A stretch of 9,661 nt of DNA, from contig JAUXWS010000080.1 in NCBI GenBank assembly GCA_030685015.1, positions 1 to 9,661 on the forward strand. The letters run 5' to 3'. Of this stretch, positions 1-9,416 are shown one piece after another. This stretch comes from a bacterium. GTDB taxonomy: Bacteria > CAIWAD01. Made by a program: the position numbers and the translations under genes. Numbering within the stretch: the first letter of the stretch is position 1; each line of letters begins with the position of its first letter. Below the pieces are notes generated by a model, which was not told where the DNA came from, did no database searches, and was given only the letters and a program-made list of their open reading frames with translations.

Positions 1-180
1 AGTCCCACCCACGTGGTGGACGTGTTACTCTCATGCATGGCCGGGCTCCTTACGTTTCTGGGCACTGCCCAGTGTGGCTCTGGTCCCTCGTGGATCAACC
101 CACGGCCAACGTAGGGACCCGGCCGTTCCATAAGGTCTAGAAGTCCTTTGGTGGCCTGCCCTGTCCACATGACAGGGCGA
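1..180. other. Gene-free left end with nested inverted repeats
   Basis: No reading frame here has a ribosome binding site or a recognisable product. Several complementary segments are visible. GGCCGGG (39-45) pairs with CCCGGCC (118-124). CTGGGC (58-63) pairs with GCCCAG (67-72). GGTCCCT (82-88) pairs with AGGGACC (113-119) and encloses CGTGG (89-93) with CCACG (100-104). The outer pair and the GGTCCCT pair share bases 118-119, so they would compete or shift slightly. GCCCTGTC (158-165) and GACAGGGC (171-178) form a separate hairpin with a 5-nt loop. This could be a small structured RNA, the 3' untranslated region of a gene outside the window, or the end of a repeat element. No known RNA family signature was recognised. 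Confidence 0.35.
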
Positions 181-820
181 CAGACAACAAGCGCAGGCGC
201 CCCGGATCCCAGGACCCGGAGCGCTCTGTATGACTGTTGGGGGGCAAGGGTTTCGAAGAAGTCGTCTGTCCCCAGACTGTCCACTGCCAGTCCCCCCGCC
301 CTTGTCCGAGGCCCCCATGTGATTGACCCACCCTTCCAACATCTCAGCAGGCGAAATAACTTTGTATAGCCGTTGATGGGCAAGGGTTTCGAAGAAGTCG
401 TCTGTCCACAGACTGTCCACAGACTGTCCCCGGACTGTCCACAGCCAGTCGTCCCGCCCCTGTCCGAGGCCCCATGTGACCGATCCCACCCTTCCAGCAT
501 CTCAGCAGGCGAAATAACTTTGTATAGCCGCTGATGGGCAAGGGTTTCGAAGAAGTCGTCTGTCCCCAGACTGTCCCCGGTCTGTCTGCAGACAGTTCCC
601 CTGTCACCAGCCCCTGTTCGACGCCCCCATGTGAGCAGTCTGACCCTCAAGCATCCCAGGGTGCGGGATAATCATGTATGTCTGCTGTTGGGCAAGCGTT
701 TCGAGGAAGTCGTCTGTCCCCAGACTGTCCCCGGACTGTCCCCAGACAGTCCCCCATCCCCTGTTGTTCCGACGCCCCCATGTGACCCATCTCACCCTCC
801 CGGGTGCGACCTCGTCATCC
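180..820. repeat. Four-copy ~155-bp tandem repeat array with nested minisatellite
   Basis: The anchor GGGCAAGGGTTTCGAAGAAG begins at 242, 378 and 536, and with two changes at 690. It is followed each time by TCGTCTGTCC. A second anchor, CATGTGA, begins at 316, 473, 628 and 779, a period of 157, 155 and 151 bp. The CATGTGA-to-GGGCAAG segment is constant at 62-63 bp. The other segment varies (74, 95, 92 and 89 bp) because it holds different numbers of ~11-bp units of the form CAGACTGTCC, CGGACTGTCC or ACAGACTGTCC. Copies 2 and 3 are the most alike (341-407 against 499-565). The flanks near 180-241 and 786-820 look like decayed partial copies. The period is not a multiple of three and frames differ between copies, so it is not a repeated protein domain. 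Read on the minus strand, the units give GGGGACAGTC-type strings, which resemble intergenic repeats seen in many bacteria. That likeness is from memory and untested. Confidence 0.85.
582..595. repeat. Perfect 14-bp palindrome inside the repeat array
   Basis: CTGTCTGCAGACAG reads the same on both strands. It sits in the variable minisatellite part of the third repeat copy. The other copies have only weaker symmetry at this place, such as GTCTG-TCCC-CAGAC or GGAC-T-GTCC, so it may simply come from divergence of the short units. Confidence 0.6.
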
Positions 821-1033
821 CCTGCGGTACCATTGAATGCGATCCTTGTGCCAGAGATGCGGTGGAAGTGGAACGAGGCCCCAGCTTAGCGGCAGACGGG
901 GCCTCGTTCACGTCTGGTGGCATCAGCAATCCGCCTGTGGGATACTCCAGGCATTGCGACGTCAATGGTCAAGCACAGTGCCAGGCCACTGGTCGATGGC
1001 AGACCGCTGCTTCGACTCCTTCGGGATGCAATG
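821..1033. other. Gene-free spacer between repeat array and terminator
   Basis: About 210 bp follow the repeat array before the hairpin that ends the leftmost gene. No supported gene is visible; the open frames crossing it only mirror the repeat array or the neighbouring gene. The one clear structure is the 12-bp inverted repeat at 871-909, listed separately. The rest shows no motif I recognise. Confidence 0.5.
871..909. repeat. Strong hairpin, 12-bp perfect stem
   Basis: GAACGAGGCCCC (871-882) and GGGGCCTCGTTC (898-909) are exact reverse complements, separated by 15 nt. With one bulged base the stem could extend to GTG (868-870). No T-run follows on either strand, so it is not a textbook intrinsic terminator. 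Its arm resembles that of the terminator-like hairpin at 1037-1060 (ACGAGCCCCC). It may be a second terminator, a stabilising 3' structure, or part of a small RNA. Confidence 0.6.
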
Positions 1034-3919: not shown

Positions 3920-4315
3920 CTACTCGCTTCCCCTGCCGTCCTCAACGGCTTGGCAGGTTGCGCAAACACCGTAGAAGGTCAGTTCGTGGAAATCCTGGAC
4001 GAATCCCGGTGGCACGAGGCTGTTCACCTCAGGCCGGCACCCGCTGATCTCAGTGACAATCCCGCAACGAAAGCAATAGAAATGGTGGTGATGTCCCGTG
4101 TCCGAGCGCTCGAATCGTGGGGCTTCACCGGCAATGTGCACCTCGCGCAGGAATCCTTCCTGGGAAAGCAACCGCAGATTTCGGTAGATCGTGGCGAGGC
4201 CCATGCGGGGTACGATCGCCTGGGCCAAGGAGAGGATCTCAAGGGGCGTCAGCGGTCGAGCCTCCTTCAGGATCACCTCGCGGATGGCGCGTCGTTGCCG
4301 AGTGTCACGTTGCAT
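3920..4315 (-). CDS. Fur/PerR-family metal-dependent transcriptional regulator
   Basis: This 131-residue cytoplasmic DNA-binding protein has the usual length of the family. A winged helix occupies about residues 5-65 (TPLEILSLAQ ... GLATIYRNLRLLSQEGFL, the recognition helix being around ATIYRNLRLL). The C-terminal metal-binding and dimer domain follows. Cys81/Cys84 (HHHHFYCFRCG) and Cys118/Cys121 (GVCATCQ) form the structural zinc site. His75-78, Glu69 and His110 are candidate ligands of the sensing metal. The position matching the amino-terminal sensing histidine of Bacillus PerR is Arg20 here (EARPLT), so a strict PerR oxidation mechanism is uncertain. The ATG at 4315 is preceded only by a weak GAGAG. 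Because the next gene is a thiol peroxidase, I infer a role in peroxide or iron response, perhaps with autoregulation. Zur or another Fur-type specificity cannot be excluded. Confidence 0.9.
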   Translation of the reverse strand: MQRDTRQRRAIREVILKEARPLTPLEILSLAQAIVPRMGLATIYRNLRLLSQEGFLREVHIAGEAPRFERSDTGHHHHFYCFRCGIVTEISGCRPEVNSLVPPGFVQDFHELTFYGVCATCQAVEDGRGSE

Positions 4316-4592: not shown

Positions 4593-7500
4593 TCACTTGA
4601 TCAGCAAGAGCTTCCGCACCGCCTCTTCGGTCCCATCCTCCAGTGCAAGGAAGTAAAGCCCCGATGCCAGACCACGGCCGTCCACCCTCAGCGTGTGGGA
4701 TCCAGCGGACACTTCGCCCCTGTGCAGGACAGCGACTTCGCGGCCCGCCACATCATGCAAGGTGATCAGCAGGTTGGTCGATCGATGCAGTGTGTAGGGA
4801 ATGCGTGCCATAGGGTTGAAGGGATTTGGATGTGGCATGCCAAGCGTGAAAGCGGGTGCTCGCTGCCCGCTTGCCCGGGGAGGCAGGGGCGTGCCCGGCT
4901 GCAGCAACTCGACCACGGCGCCCATCCATTCCTGCCGGCTGTTGGTGTTGGCCATGCCGGAGATGGCTTCCAAACCGAAGCCGCAAGCGAACAAGGTCAT
5001 CTCCATGTCCCAATGGGCAGCTCCCAGGATGGCCGCTTCCTGGCTGTTGCGATAGACGGCCAGCGGCACGGAGTATTCGACACCCTCGCAAGCCTGCAGA
5101 GAGCTGCGGCCGACCTGGTTGCCGGCTCCGCCCGCCCCGATGAGCAGGGCGCTTAAACCTTCAAACACGGTTCCGGGCAAGCCATCCACCACCACATCGG
5201 CCACATTGGTGCTGAGCGGTTGGAAGAGGCATTCGGCCGCGGGCTGGTCCCAGGCGTCCTGACCGCTGACGAACACCGTGCCTTGAGCAAGTGTGTGGAT
5301 CCCGCGCAAGTAGGATTGCTGGTCGGCCTCCAGCACCTGGCCGCCGGCTCCGGTGAACCAGAGCAGGGCGCTGTGGTCGGGCAGCCCGGGGGGGGGCAGC
5401 GGATCGAGATCAACGCGCAGGTGATCGGTGAAGACGCGCAATGAATCAAGCGAATCCTCGTAGTAGGGAAGCAGATTCATCTGGGAGCCGGGCATGGCCA
5501 GCAGGAGCCAGGGGTCGCCCATGGGCAGGCGGAAGGAGCTGGTCTGTGCGGTGTGGCCGAAGCTGGTGGAATGCAGGACAAGGTCGGCATAGGCCATCCC
5601 CGACTGGTTCCAGCCGCTGATTTGCACGTGGCCAGTCGGCAGGGTCACAACTGTGCCACCGCCGGCCTCGGGCACGGGCTCCCAAGCACCGGCCACATCC
5701 AGGGTGGAGCTGCCCAGGCTGAACTGGATGTCCGTGTCCCAGCCGCCCACGTTCTCCACGGTCAGGCTGAGCCAGGCCCAATCGCCTGGGGCCAGGTCGC
5801 CGTCCCCGTTGCCGCCTTCGCTGTCGTCCATGGTGAAACTCCGCACCTGCCACAGCGGAGGACCCGGCTGCGGTGGCACGGTGACGTGACGACAAAGGAC
5901 AGTTTCCCGATGGTTGAAAAGCAGGGTGTCAAAAACGCCCGGCAGAAGCCAACTGTGCTGTGTGGAGGGGTCTTCGATCCAGACGAAGGTGTCCAGCAGC
6001 GCCGCGCTGGTGAGGAGGCGGATGGGAAGGCGGGCCCGGAAGGACTCCTGCACCTGATGGCTTTGGTTGACCGTCAAATGGATGCGGCAGAAGTCCCCCT
6101 CCTCCCGCTGCTCGGTCACGGTGTGGTAGGTCGGGTAGCCACCCCGGTAGATCCATTGCTGGAAGAACCAGTCCAGATCCAGTCCAGAGGCGGCTTCCAT
6201 CGCCTCTTGATACTCCCGGGCGTCCACCGTGCCGTGGCGGTGTGCCGCCAGCCAGTCGCGCTGGGCTTGGTGGAAAGCGACCTCCCCCATCAGATCCCGC
6301 AACATGTGGAGGACGCTGGCCGCCTTCTCATACTGGTTGATGGTGAAGAGGTTGTTGGGCGGGGGAGCATGGATGGGCTGGAACTGCGTGTCCCAATTGA
6401 GATAGGTCTGTTGGATCAGGCGCAGGTACTCCAGGAAAGCGTCTGCGCTGCCACCGGCAAGATGTTGATAGAAATACGCTTCGGCATAGGTGGCCCATCC
6501 CTCGTTGAGCCAGACATGGCGGAAGTCGACGGGCGTGACGCTGTCCCCCCACCACATGTGGCTCAATTCGTGGGCGATGATCGACTCGTACTGCAGGCCG
6601 GCGGCAATGATGCCGCTGCCGATGGTTGTGCAGGTCTGATGCTCCATGCCACCCATGCCACCATAGATGGGCGCCTCACCCATGGCGTAGCTTGAGAAGG
6701 GATACCCGCCCCACAAGGACGTGAAACAGGCCAACATCTGATCCATCCGGGACACCGCCTGCCATGCCGGTGCCACATGCTGGGGGTAGACGAACCAACG
6801 CATGGGCAGGCCGTTCCAATTATCCTCCAGGATGGTCAGGCGTCCGCATGCAAAGCTGACCAGGTAGCTGCTCATGGGGACATCGTGGCGATAGGCCCAG
6901 GTGCTGGTGCCGTCTCCATGGTGCGTGATCCCAAGCAATTCGCCGTTGGCCAGGGTGGCAAAGGTCGAGTCGGCCCGCACGGAAACACTCCACAGCGCTT
7001 TGTCATGCGGTTCATCAAAGCAGGGCAGCCAGTTGCGCGTGCCCCACGGATCGGACAGGGTATAGGCGATCTGCGGGGAGACGGAAAGCCCCAGCCCATT
7101 CTCCCAGACGGGCGGACCGGCGTAGTGCAGCACAAGCCTGGCACTGTCCCCGGGAGCCAGCGCATGACCGGCCAGGTCGAGGAGGAGCCGGTCCGCCTCG
7201 CGGGTGAAGGGGGTCGCCTGGCCGTTGAGGCAGACGTCCGCCACCGTGTAGCCGCGCAGGTGGAGTTGAAGAGCGTCCAGCGCCTCGCGTGCCACCAGGT
7301 CGATGGTCATCGAGGCCTGCAGGTGGGCGGGCGGCCCAAAGCTGAGCCACAACGAGGCGTCATAGCGCAGGGCGTCGTAGGCGTGAAGGCTGTCCACCCG
7401 CTCGTCACCCTGCGCCACCGGTGCCAGCGGCCGGCGGTGCAGGAAGCGTGAGGAGTCGGCGAAGCCCCCCCACAGAGCAGCCTGTCGGACGTGGGCCTTT

Positions 7501-7799
7501 GATGGGTTTCGCGCCCATGTCGTGGACCATTCGGCGGGGATTTCGCGCCGCGTAATGGTATTTACTCGCAAGAAATCTGCGTCGGATGGGACCGGCTGGC
7601 CCGACGCGAGCATCGGGTGGGGCGATGAAGACCGCACAGCGACCAAGCCCGACAGGCTGCTGGCAGGCTGTGGAGACTCTGCTGCCCAGGTTGGGCCACT
7701 CGCCAGGAGCTGACCGGCCAGGCAAAACAACTGCAGGATGCCGCCAGGTCGCCACTCTTTCAAAGAGTGCTGCATCGATATGATTCCAATACACATCAT
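4593..7799 (-). CDS. Secreted M1-family metallopeptidase (aminopeptidase N-like) with C-terminal sorting domain
   Basis: This product of about 1068 residues is a zinc aminopeptidase exported for peptide breakdown. A signal peptide lies at the start (core ILQLFCLAGQLLASG, likely cut near TWA-A). The M1 amino-terminal beta domain spans about 140-320 (NWLPCFDEPHDKA). Exopeptidase motif GGMEH at 383-387 replaces the usual GAMEN. Zinc ligands are His410, His414 (HELSH) and Glu433 in WLNEGW, with the exact 18-residue spacing and catalytic Glu411. Tyr490 in YEKAA is the probable transition-state tyrosine. After about residue 640 come a beta domain containing GNGDGDLAPGD (about 659-759), a region of alpha/beta look (about 764-969, with LLWFTGAGG and VFVSGQDAW), and a type IX-like sorting domain (985-1068: PNPFNP, SGLYFLAL, KLLLIK). 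The start at 7799 (ATGATG) overlaps the upstream stop as ATGA, suggesting coupled translation; an ATG at 7775 is a good alternative because it sits directly before the signal peptide. Confidence 0.9.
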   Translation of the reverse strand: MMCIGIISMQHSLKEWRPGGILQLFCLAGQLLASGPTWAAESPQPASSLSGLVAVRSSSPHPMLASGQPVPSDADFLRVNTITRREIPAEWSTTWARNPSKAHVRQAALWGGFADSSRFLHRRPLAPVAQGDERVDSLHAYDALRYDASLWLSFGPPAHLQASMTIDLVAREALDALQLHLRGYTVADVCLNGQATPFTREADRLLLDLAGHALAPGDSARLVLHYAGPPVWENGLGLSVSPQIAYTLSDPWGTRNWLPCFDEPHDKALWSVSVRADSTFATLANGELLGITHHGDGTSTWAYRHDVPMSSYLVSFACGRLTILEDNWNGLPMRWFVYPQHVAPAWQAVSRMDQMLACFTSLWGGYPFSSYAMGEAPIYGGMGGMEHQTCTTIGSGIIAAGLQYESIIAHELSHMWWGDSVTPVDFRHVWLNEGWATYAEAYFYQHLAGGSADAFLEYLRLIQQTYLNWDTQFQPIHAPPPNNLFTINQYEKAASVLHMLRDLMGEVAFHQAQRDWLAAHRHGTVDAREYQEAMEAASGLDLDWFFQQWIYRGGYPTYHTVTEQREEGDFCRIHLTVNQSHQVQESFRARLPIRLLTSAALLDTFVWIEDPSTQHSWLLPGVFDTLLFNHRETVLCRHVTVPPQPGPPLWQVRSFTMDDSEGGNGDGDLAPGDWAWLSLTVENVGGWDTDIQFSLGSSTLDVAGAWEPVPEAGGGTVVTLPTGHVQISGWNQSGMAYADLVLHSTSFGHTAQTSSFRLPMGDPWLLLAMPGSQMNLLPYYEDSLDSLRVFTDHLRVDLDPLPPPGLPDHSALLWFTGAGGQVLEADQQSYLRGIHTLAQGTVFVSGQDAWDQPAAECLFQPLSTNVADVVVDGLPGTVFEGLSALLIGAGGAGNQVGRSSLQACEGVEYSVPLAVYRNSQEAAILGAAHWDMEMTLFACGFGLEAISGMANTNSRQEWMGAVVELLQPGTPLPPRASGQRAPAFTLGMPHPNPFNPMARIPYTLHRSTNLLITLHDVAGREVAVLHRGEVSAGSHTLRVDGRGLASGLYFLALEDGTEEAVRKLLLIK

Positions 7800-9127
7800 G
7801 TGGATCTGGCCAATGTCTGCCGCGCCCATCGGCACGCCGCCTCCTTGTCGGTCAAGCGATCCTCCAGCTGCAGGGCCTCCAGTTCTTTGACCATGGCTCC
7901 CAAGGCGGGACCGGGCGGCGAACCCATTTCCATCAACTCCGTACCTGTGAGCAGGGGAGATGGATGCCACCTTGATTGGTGGTATGCCACAAGCTGAGCC
8001 ATCTGCGACCAGGCTACCGGCGCGGCCTGTGGCACGTGGCATGCCACCTCGCGAAGCCAGTCCGACTCAGGTCCGCGCAGGATGCGCAACTGGTCGGCCA
8101 GCCGCAGGGAGGGAAAGGTGGACAGCTGGCATAGCACCCGGGCAAGCTCTTCCATCATGGCCACATCCCGCCGGGAGCCCCGCAAGGACCGCATCAGGCA
8201 GGCAAGGGCGTGGGCGGCCTCCCGCATGCGGCCGGGCGTCAGCTCCGCAAACTCATGGCCCGCCACATCCAGCAAGAGGCAGGCCAAGCCACCACGTTGC
8301 ATGTCGCACCGCCCCGGCACCGCAATCGTCCGGCTGGCCGTTTTCCATGCCTGTCGCCAATGGCCGCTGGCACCGCTCCCCAGCCAGGGCGCGCGGTGTT
8401 GATCCCACTTCCCGGCCTCTTCGCGCAGCCATCGGCACAGCACGGGCCACAAGGCCGCGTCTTCCAGCAAATCCAAGCCCACGCCCGCGGCCGGGGCGGC
8501 CAGGAGCTTGTCCAGTTCCTGACGCACCCGTTCCAGGCTGACCACCACCAGATGTCCGGCATGGTCGCGGATGGCCTGGAGGGTGGCGCTGTCCACGCCG
8601 AAGCCCAGCTGGGCGGCGAAACGGACGGCCCGCAGCATGCGCAGGCGATCCTCGGCGAAGCGTTCCTCCGGCGGGCCGATGGTGCGGATGAGCCGGGCGG
8701 CCACATCCGCCTGGCCGCCCACCCAATCCATCAACTCGCCGGTCTCTGGATCCCACAGCATGCCATTGACGGTGAAGTCGCGCCGGCGCACGTCTACCAG
8801 GGCGGTGGAGAAGCGGACCTGCCCCGGGTGGCGGCCGTCCATGTAGCCGTCCTCCTCGCGGAAAGTGGCCACTTCGAAGTCGCGGCCACAGTGACGGACG
8901 ATCACCACGCCGAAGCTCTCGCCAACGGCAAAGGTGCGGGGAAAGAGGGCGCGCACCTGCTCCGGAGTGGCGGAGGTGGCGATGTCGAGGTCGGTCTGCA
9001 CCCGGCCCAGCAGGTAGTCGCGCACGGCGCCGCCGGCGATGAAGGCTTCGTGGCCCGACTGGCGCAGGGTGCGGATGATTTCCCGTGCCGGCTGGTAAAG
9101 TCGGGGTGGTGCGAACTCGATCTTCAT
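7796..9127 (-). CDS. cca: CCA tRNA nucleotidyltransferase / poly(A) polymerase family (class II)
   Basis: This enzyme of about 443 residues adds nucleotides without a template to RNA 3' ends, most likely the CCA end of tRNA. The class II head is clear. GGAVRDYLLGR begins at residue 32, and the two metal-binding aspartates are Asp46 and Asp48 in TDLDIAT. RRRDFTVNG at 114-122 fits the sugar-binding motif. RTIGPPEERFAEDRLRMLRAVRFAAQLGF (start about 148) contains the neck motif with Glu159, Asp160 and the arginines that recognise the base. The carboxyl half is helical and poorly conserved, as is usual. CCA-adding, A-adding and poly(A) activity cannot be separated with certainty by eye. ATG at 9127 is chosen because the fold begins right after it; the frame extends to a GTG at 9214 with no homologous sequence, and neither start has a clear ribosome binding site. 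Its stop overlaps the M1 peptidase start by 4 bp. Confidence 0.85.
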   Translation of the reverse strand: MKIEFAPPRLYQPAREIIRTLRQSGHEAFIAGGAVRDYLLGRVQTDLDIATSATPEQVRALFPRTFAVGESFGVVIVRHCGRDFEVATFREEDGYMDGRHPGQVRFSTALVDVRRRDFTVNGMLWDPETGELMDWVGGQADVAARLIRTIGPPEERFAEDRLRMLRAVRFAAQLGFGVDSATLQAIRDHAGHLVVVSLERVRQELDKLLAAPAAGVGLDLLEDAALWPVLCRWLREEAGKWDQHRAPWLGSGASGHWRQAWKTASRTIAVPGRCDMQRGGLACLLLDVAGHEFAELTPGRMREAAHALACLMRSLRGSRRDVAMMEELARVLCQLSTFPSLRLADQLRILRGPESDWLREVACHVPQAAPVAWSQMAQLVAYHQSRWHPSPLLTGTELMEMGSPPGPALGAMVKELEALQLEDRLTDKEAACRWARQTLARST

Positions 9128-9416
9128 GGCAGGGGCAGCATAGCATTCCGGCAGAAGCGGCGTGGGCTGAACGCGTCGTGTGGAAGAATTGATCGACCCA
9201 GGACGGGGGTACACATTCGACAGGGAGATGAAGCTGTACCATCGTTTAATTCATGCATGAGGGTTGATGGACCCTGGGCATGACCTTTGCGCCGTTGGAT
9301 CCTGAGGCAGTCGTTCGGAATGATTCAAGCCATCATCAATTCGAAGTCAGCAACACTTTTTCACTTCCTGCCCGCCAAGAAGTGTCAAAAGGCTCGTGTC
9401 CGGGTGGTTGAAGCGC

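What the first reader, a model, noticed from the sequence alone, without database searches (positions are those of the whole stretch)
180..820. Tandem ~155-bp repeat array with a constant block and a variable minisatellite block
Four units share a rigid 62-63 bp segment and a length-variable segment made of ~11-bp GACTGTCC units. Copies 2 and 3 are nearly identical, suggesting recent duplication, while the outer units are decayed. It lies in a gene-free stretch and is not coding. It could be a REP-like non-autonomous element mobilised in trans, a protein-binding array, or a source of repeated hairpin RNAs.
Basis: partly seen in the sequence, partly recalled or inferred. Interest (0 to 1): 0.6.

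Follow-up and report, generated by a model that had tools for sequence, protein, structure and literature searches.

The report
Tandem array carrying transposase-linked 11-bp repeats
A run of four 155-base repeats in a bacterial genome carries short 11-base repeats of the kind that surround a class of one-tyrosine transposase genes, so it is probably a local pile-up of a transposase-linked repeat rather than a gene or a new mobile element.

Summary
The array is real: four units of 136, 158, 154 and 151 bp at 191-789, each with a near-invariant 30-bp core and two to four 11-bp CTGTCCNNNGA copies. The 155-bp unit as a whole occurs nowhere else in the assembly, in 59 other genomes, or in the phage and plasmid collections, so it is not a dispersed element. 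The 11-bp block is dispersed: about ten loci in this genome, several just after stop codons, and one lies at the 3' end of a RAYT-type tyrosine transposase gene. Its GGGGACAG core matches the published GGGGWSAS motif of TIRYT-flanking repeats, and that core is enriched beside related transposase genes in 80 named genomes. In this bacterial family such genes are repeatedly flanked by 11/12-bp minisatellites (4 of 10 loci, 6 arrays; 0.16 expected). Best reading: a RAYT/TIRYT-linked repeat tandemly amplified together with flanking DNA, next to a mobile-element end. This is a new variant of a known kind; the more interesting part is the 11-bp minisatellite-RAYT association, which I did not find described.

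The parts
1..140 (-). End of a multi-copy mobile element: upstream region and first codons (MHESNTSTTWVG...) of its transposase. The contig breaks here.
   Evidence: The same 140 bp is at C48:122-261, 100% identical; the terminal 22-mer is at the start or end of five contigs. IS110-like only by inspection; no Pfam hit for the 53 residues available.
191..326 (+). Array unit 1 (136 bp, most diverged)
327..484 (+). Array unit 2 (158 bp)
485..638 (+). Array unit 3 (154 bp, 82% identical to unit 2)
639..789 (+). Array unit 4 (151 bp)
242..271 (+). 30-bp constant core, unit 1
378..407 (+). 30-bp constant core, unit 2
536..565 (+). 30-bp constant core, unit 3
690..719 (+). 30-bp constant core, unit 4 (two substitutions)
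265..292 (+). 11-bp repeats, unit 1: 2 copies ending in an inverted CCAGTC
401..450 (+). 11-bp repeats, unit 2: 4 copies ending in an inverted CCAGTC
559..597 (+). 11-bp repeats, unit 3: 2-3 copies ending in the palindrome CTGTCTGCAGACAG
713..754 (+). 11-bp repeats, unit 4: 3 copies; the last forms an 8-bp hairpin GGACTGTC-CCCA-GACAGTCC with an inverted copy
   Evidence: (fold z -5.5)

Best explanation
Each unit carries a small cluster of a dispersed, non-autonomous repeat: direct 11-bp copies of (C)TGTCCNNNGA, usually closed by an inverted copy that can form a hairpin. This repeat belongs to the class recognised by a RAYT/TIRYT-type single-tyrosine (HUH) transposase; the likely partner in this genome is the gene on contig C6. 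Shown: dispersal of the 11-bp repeat, its position at the 3' end of the C6 transposase gene, the match of its core to the published TIRYT flank motif and to flanks in other genomes, and the absence of the array in sister species. Inferred: the transposase binds, nicks and rejoins the repeat as single strands, which seeded a copy downstream of the C10 peptidase gene; the copy and about 110 bp of neighbouring DNA were then duplicated in tandem, by slippage, unequal recombination or transposase strand transfer, and the units diverged. A copy of a multi-copy mobile element lies about 50 bp from the array; that it inserted later is inferred.
For: (1) ACTGTCCN4ACTGTCC with at most 1 mismatch: 31 matches against 1 for the reversed control; GGACAGTCN4GACTGTCC: 23 sites against 3. 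(2) The C6 RAYT gene (245-571, NF047646 E 7e-22, just under the curated cut-off) has GACTGTCCGCA copies at bases 1-41 at its 3' end. (3) All seven GGGGWSAS sites in the array are CTGTCCCC; GGGGACAG lies in the 5' flank of 16/80 and CTGTCCCC in the 3' flank of 15/80 related transposase genes, against 1/593 and 4/593 distant pieces. GGGGWSAS is the TIRYT flank motif (PMC3733652; PMC6006769). (4) Other RAYT genes in this genome have their own repeats: C19 a hairpin on both sides, a family with dozens of sites genome-wide; C94 a 161-bp tandem array with one hairpin per unit, which is the same architecture as this window; C100 an 11-bp array on both sides. (5) C65 holds a 218-bp tandem duplication around the same 11-bp repeat. 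(6) No array downstream of the orthologous C10 genes in two sister species. (7) REP clusters repeated in tandem with their flanks are documented in P. fluorescens (PMC3116915).
Against: The C6 gene shows the repeat on one side only; the contig starts inside the repeat. On the gene strand its 3' flank reads mainly GGGACAGTC, not the CTGTCCCC expected of a terminal inverted repeat. The extended form GACTGTCC is not enriched beside RAYT genes of other genomes (p = 0.6); only the GGGGACAG core is. The near-invariant 30-bp core of the array lies mostly outside the 11-bp repeat and is unexplained. No transposase gene of this class lies in the window.
Confidence: 0.62

Rival explanations
1. Ordinary VNTR: the array and the 11-bp clusters grew by replication slippage alone, and the transposase link is coincidental.
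For: Tandem arrays need no enzyme to expand; the 155-bp unit is unique to this locus.
Against: The 11-bp sequence recurs at about ten unlinked loci. A sampled 800 kb of the clade holds only four 11/12-bp arrays of score 100 or more, and all four belong to sequence families that also flank RAYT genes in the clade. RAYT loci hold 6 such arrays where 0.16 are expected.
Confidence: 0.2
2. Functional protein-binding or regulatory array: the conserved 30-bp core is the selected part and is read by a DNA-binding protein, and the 11-bp units are passengers.
For: The core is far more conserved than the rest of the unit (28/30 against 48/105 columns).
Against: The core exists only here in this genome and the unit is found in no sister genome; homogenisation between copies would give the same pattern.
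Confidence: 0.1
3. The 155-bp unit is itself a REP-like non-autonomous element mobilised as a whole.
For: It holds RAYT-type repeats and hairpins.
Against: No copy anywhere outside this array.
Confidence: 0.05
4. Source of a repeated hairpin RNA.
For: Units 3 and 4 fold better than shuffles (z -2.5 and -5.5, DNA parameters).
Against: Units 1 and 2 do not; no Rfam family reaches threshold.
Confidence: 0.03

Closest known systems
TIRYT / TIRtron repeats (Di Nocera et al. 2013, PMC3733652)
   Same: RAYT-like transposases flanked by repeats with the motif GGGGWSAS; some of these repeats form dispersed families as dimers or clusters. The window repeat contains GGGGACAG.
   Different: Here the repeat is organised as 11-bp direct minisatellites, often with a terminal inverted copy; it was seen on one side of the C6 gene only.
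REP/REPIN clusters with RAYT (Bertels and Rainey 2011, PMC3116915)
   Same: Dispersed extragenic repeats tied to a RAYT gene; clusters repeated in tandem together with flanking sequence.
   Different: No GTAG foot and no long imperfect palindrome in the window's repeat; the higher-order unit is unique to one locus.
Bacterial VNTR / minisatellite loci
   Same: Tandem units with variable copy number in non-coding DNA.
   Different: The 11-bp sequence is shared among unlinked loci and with transposase gene flanks.

Membership tests
REP element (RAYT-linked palindrome) | Dispersed, mostly extragenic copies | tested here: met
   For the 11-bp block: about ten loci, several directly after stop codons. 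For the 155-bp unit: not met.
REP element (RAYT-linked palindrome) | Imperfect palindrome with a GTAG or GTGG foot | tested here: not met
   Hairpins are GGACAGTC/GACTGTCC with no GTAG foot.
TIRYT-associated repeat | Flanks a RAYT-like Y1 transposase gene on both sides in inverted orientation | tested here: inconclusive
   Present at the 3' side of C6; the contig starts inside the repeat, and no array or hairpin of this kind was found in the 5' flank to base 4000.
TIRYT-associated repeat | GGGGWSAS motif | tested here: met
   Seven CTGTCCCC sites in the array; motif defined in PMC3733652.
RAYT transposase (contig C6 gene) | HUH-type H-x-H motif and catalytic Tyr in Y---NP | tested here: met
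   NHIHL and LYIERNP, invariant in alignment A1; Y1_Tnp over the cut-off; NF047646 77.8 bits against a cut-off of 80; 4er8 TnpAREP found by profile, E 6e-6.
REP or TIRYT system | Transposase binds and cleaves the repeat | not testable with these tools
   Needs biochemistry.

The most novel reading that the evidence does not exclude
In this little-known bacterial family many RAYT-type transposases are paired with their own minisatellite of 11 (or 12) bp, present beside the gene and dispersed elsewhere in the genome as tandem arrays: a RAYT-driven class of tandem repeats distinct from palindromic REPs, with a unit close to one helical turn. The window is one such repeat caught in a higher-order amplification.
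Probability: 0.4. Interest if true: 0.65.

Novelty: new variant of a known kind. Interest (0 to 1): 0.48.

Why it matters
RAYT transposases are widespread, yet their substrates are known mainly for GTAG palindromes; one large subclass was reported as having no recognisable REP (PMC6006769). If some RAYTs work on 11-bp direct repeats, that would give a candidate substrate and a concrete mechanism for how bacterial minisatellites arise and spread.

Tried and rejected
Coding sequence: rejected, since periods are not all multiples of 3 and there is no supported frame. Rfam RNA families: nothing over threshold. Phage, plasmid or viral origin of the unit: no match. A wider family of the 155-bp unit in 59 other genomes: only the 11-bp part gave a weak hit in one distant genome. 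A first genome-contig scan with the C6 protein alone found nothing; an alignment of nine RAYTs worked. RAYT loci of 27 distant genomes showed almost no tandem arrays (1 of 27), so the minisatellite habit is not general. The 11-bp period itself was not seen beside the named, mostly proteobacterial RAYTs, whose flank arrays have periods of 14-41 bp. Literature search for minisatellites linked to RAYT or TIRYT found none; only the open PMC library was searched.

Full report
Where it is. The window is the whole of contig C80 of a 3.61-Mb, 105-contig, 97% complete genome. Few relatives are held: two of the same genus, one of the same family, one of the same class; the organism could not be named. 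Genes to the right, all on the minus strand, are a C10 peptidase with a secretion tail, a glutathione peroxidase, a Fur-like regulator, an M1 peptidase with a secretion tail and a tRNA nucleotidyltransferase-like protein. Bases 1-140 are 100% identical to C48:122-261, and the terminal 22-mer recurs at the ends of five contigs: this is the end of a multi-copy mobile element, and the assembly breaks on it. It looks IS110-like from its first residues (VGLDVHQ), which I could not confirm.

What it is. Four units at 191-326, 327-484, 485-638 and 639-789. Each has a diverged left part, a 30-bp core with 28 of 30 columns invariant (against 48 of 105 elsewhere), two to four direct 11-bp copies of CTGTCCNNNGA, and an inverted copy or palindrome at the end of the cluster. 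The array is far beyond chance.

Where else it occurs. The 155-bp unit and its core occur nowhere else in this genome; the unit is also absent from 59 other genomes and from plasmids and phages, and the core from viral contigs. In the two sister species the C10 peptidase gene has other DNA downstream. The 11-bp repeat recurs at C5, C6, C34, C40, C45, C48, C59 (two places) and C65. At C34 and C59 it lies just after a stop codon, and at C40 close to one, in two or three cases of a gene with the same secretion-tail end. At C5, C34, C40 and C48 it adjoins another dispersed hairpin, GGTGTCCGACCATGGGTCGGACACC; at C48 also GGTCAGAC..GTCTGACC and at C40 a degenerate form of it, making mosaics like BIMEs. 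At C65 it sits in a 218-bp tandem duplication.

The transposase link. The genome has five Y1_Tnp genes. Four are RAYT-type (alignment A1). C6: 11-bp GACTGTCCGCA copies at its 3' end, where the contig starts. C19: the GGTGTCCGACC hairpin on both sides. C94: GGTCAGAC..GTCTGACC hairpins on both sides, those on the 5' side inside a 161-bp tandem array of 2.8 copies, the same architecture as the window. C100: 11-bp GGGCAACACCA arrays on both sides. In sister genomes: G001:C83 11 bp x 11; G001:C281 11/22 bp on both sides; G003:C59 12 bp x 19. A sample of 800 kb from the same genomes held four 11/12-bp arrays of score 100 or more; one repeats the C100 family (C76), one matches the G001:C281 family (C67), and two match the G003:C59 family (G000:C19 and G003:C75). 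Against that rate, 0.16 arrays are expected in the 31 kb around ten RAYT genes and six are seen. The sampled regions were chosen by hand and the count is small, so the p-value of 2e-8 should be read loosely; at the level of loci (4) it is 2e-5.

Beyond this family. Of 80 related genes in named genomes, mostly Proteobacteria, 5' flanks carry GGGGTCA and 3' flanks TGACCCC, and a second set GGGGACAG and CTGTCCCC, strongly above distant pieces of the same contigs. These fit GGGGWSAS, the motif of the repeats that flank TIRYT genes (PMC3733652); PMC6006769 says its subclass 2.1, for which it found no REP, probably corresponds to the TIRYTs. The window's CTGTCCCC is the same core. The longer GACTGTCC is not enriched there, so the link to those genomes is by core motif only.

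Mechanism. Shown: dispersal, position beside one RAYT gene, motif match, lineage-specific array. Inferred: recognition and single-strand cleavage and rejoining by the RAYT, seeding at this locus, and tandem amplification with flanking DNA. Tandem REP clusters that include flanking sequence are already described (PMC3116915), so higher-order arrays need no new principle. Why the 30-bp core is so constant is open: selection or recent homogenisation.

Verdict. The REP-like interpretation holds for the 11-bp block, as a TIRYT-type rather than a GTAG-type repeat, and fails for the 155-bp unit. The broader pattern, 11-bp minisatellites paired with RAYT genes, is the most interesting outcome; I found no earlier description in the library searched.

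Noticed in passing
G000 C19:68849-69704 and dozens of other sites: A dispersed hairpin family GGTGTCCGACC-ATGG-GTCGGACACC, often in pairs about 160-260 bp apart (REPIN-like), flanks the C19 RAYT gene on both sides.
   Followed up: partly
L082:2307-2770 (G000 C94): 161-bp tandem array of 2.8 copies, each with a GGTCAGAC..GTCTGACC hairpin, directly upstream of a RAYT gene.
   Followed up: partly
L055:1963-2931 and L065:2088-3015 (G003 C44, C46): IS200-like Y1 transposase genes directly beside 443-bp x 2.2 and 306-bp x 3 tandem arrays.
   Followed up: no
L079:1-166 (G000 C45) and L268:1177-1309 (G000 C67): 11-bp CCCGGGGGAAG arrays with no transposase seen nearby; the same family flanks a RAYT gene in sister genome G001:C281.
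   Followed up: partly
window 1-140: Copies of this mobile-element end at C48 and C80 lie within about 130 bp of RAYT-type repeats; the other insertion sites read (C49, C90) show no common flank.
   Followed up: partly
window 852-909: Perfect 12-bp hairpin GAACGAGGCCCC..GGGGCCTCGTTC in a 55-bp stretch, parts of which recur three times within 3.3 kb of sister genome G002:C158, once just downstream of the orthologous C10 gene.
   Followed up: partly
window 4593-8042: The M1 peptidase frame as listed overlaps the 3' end of the tRNA nucleotidyltransferase-like gene (7796-9214); its true start is probably further in.
   Followed up: no
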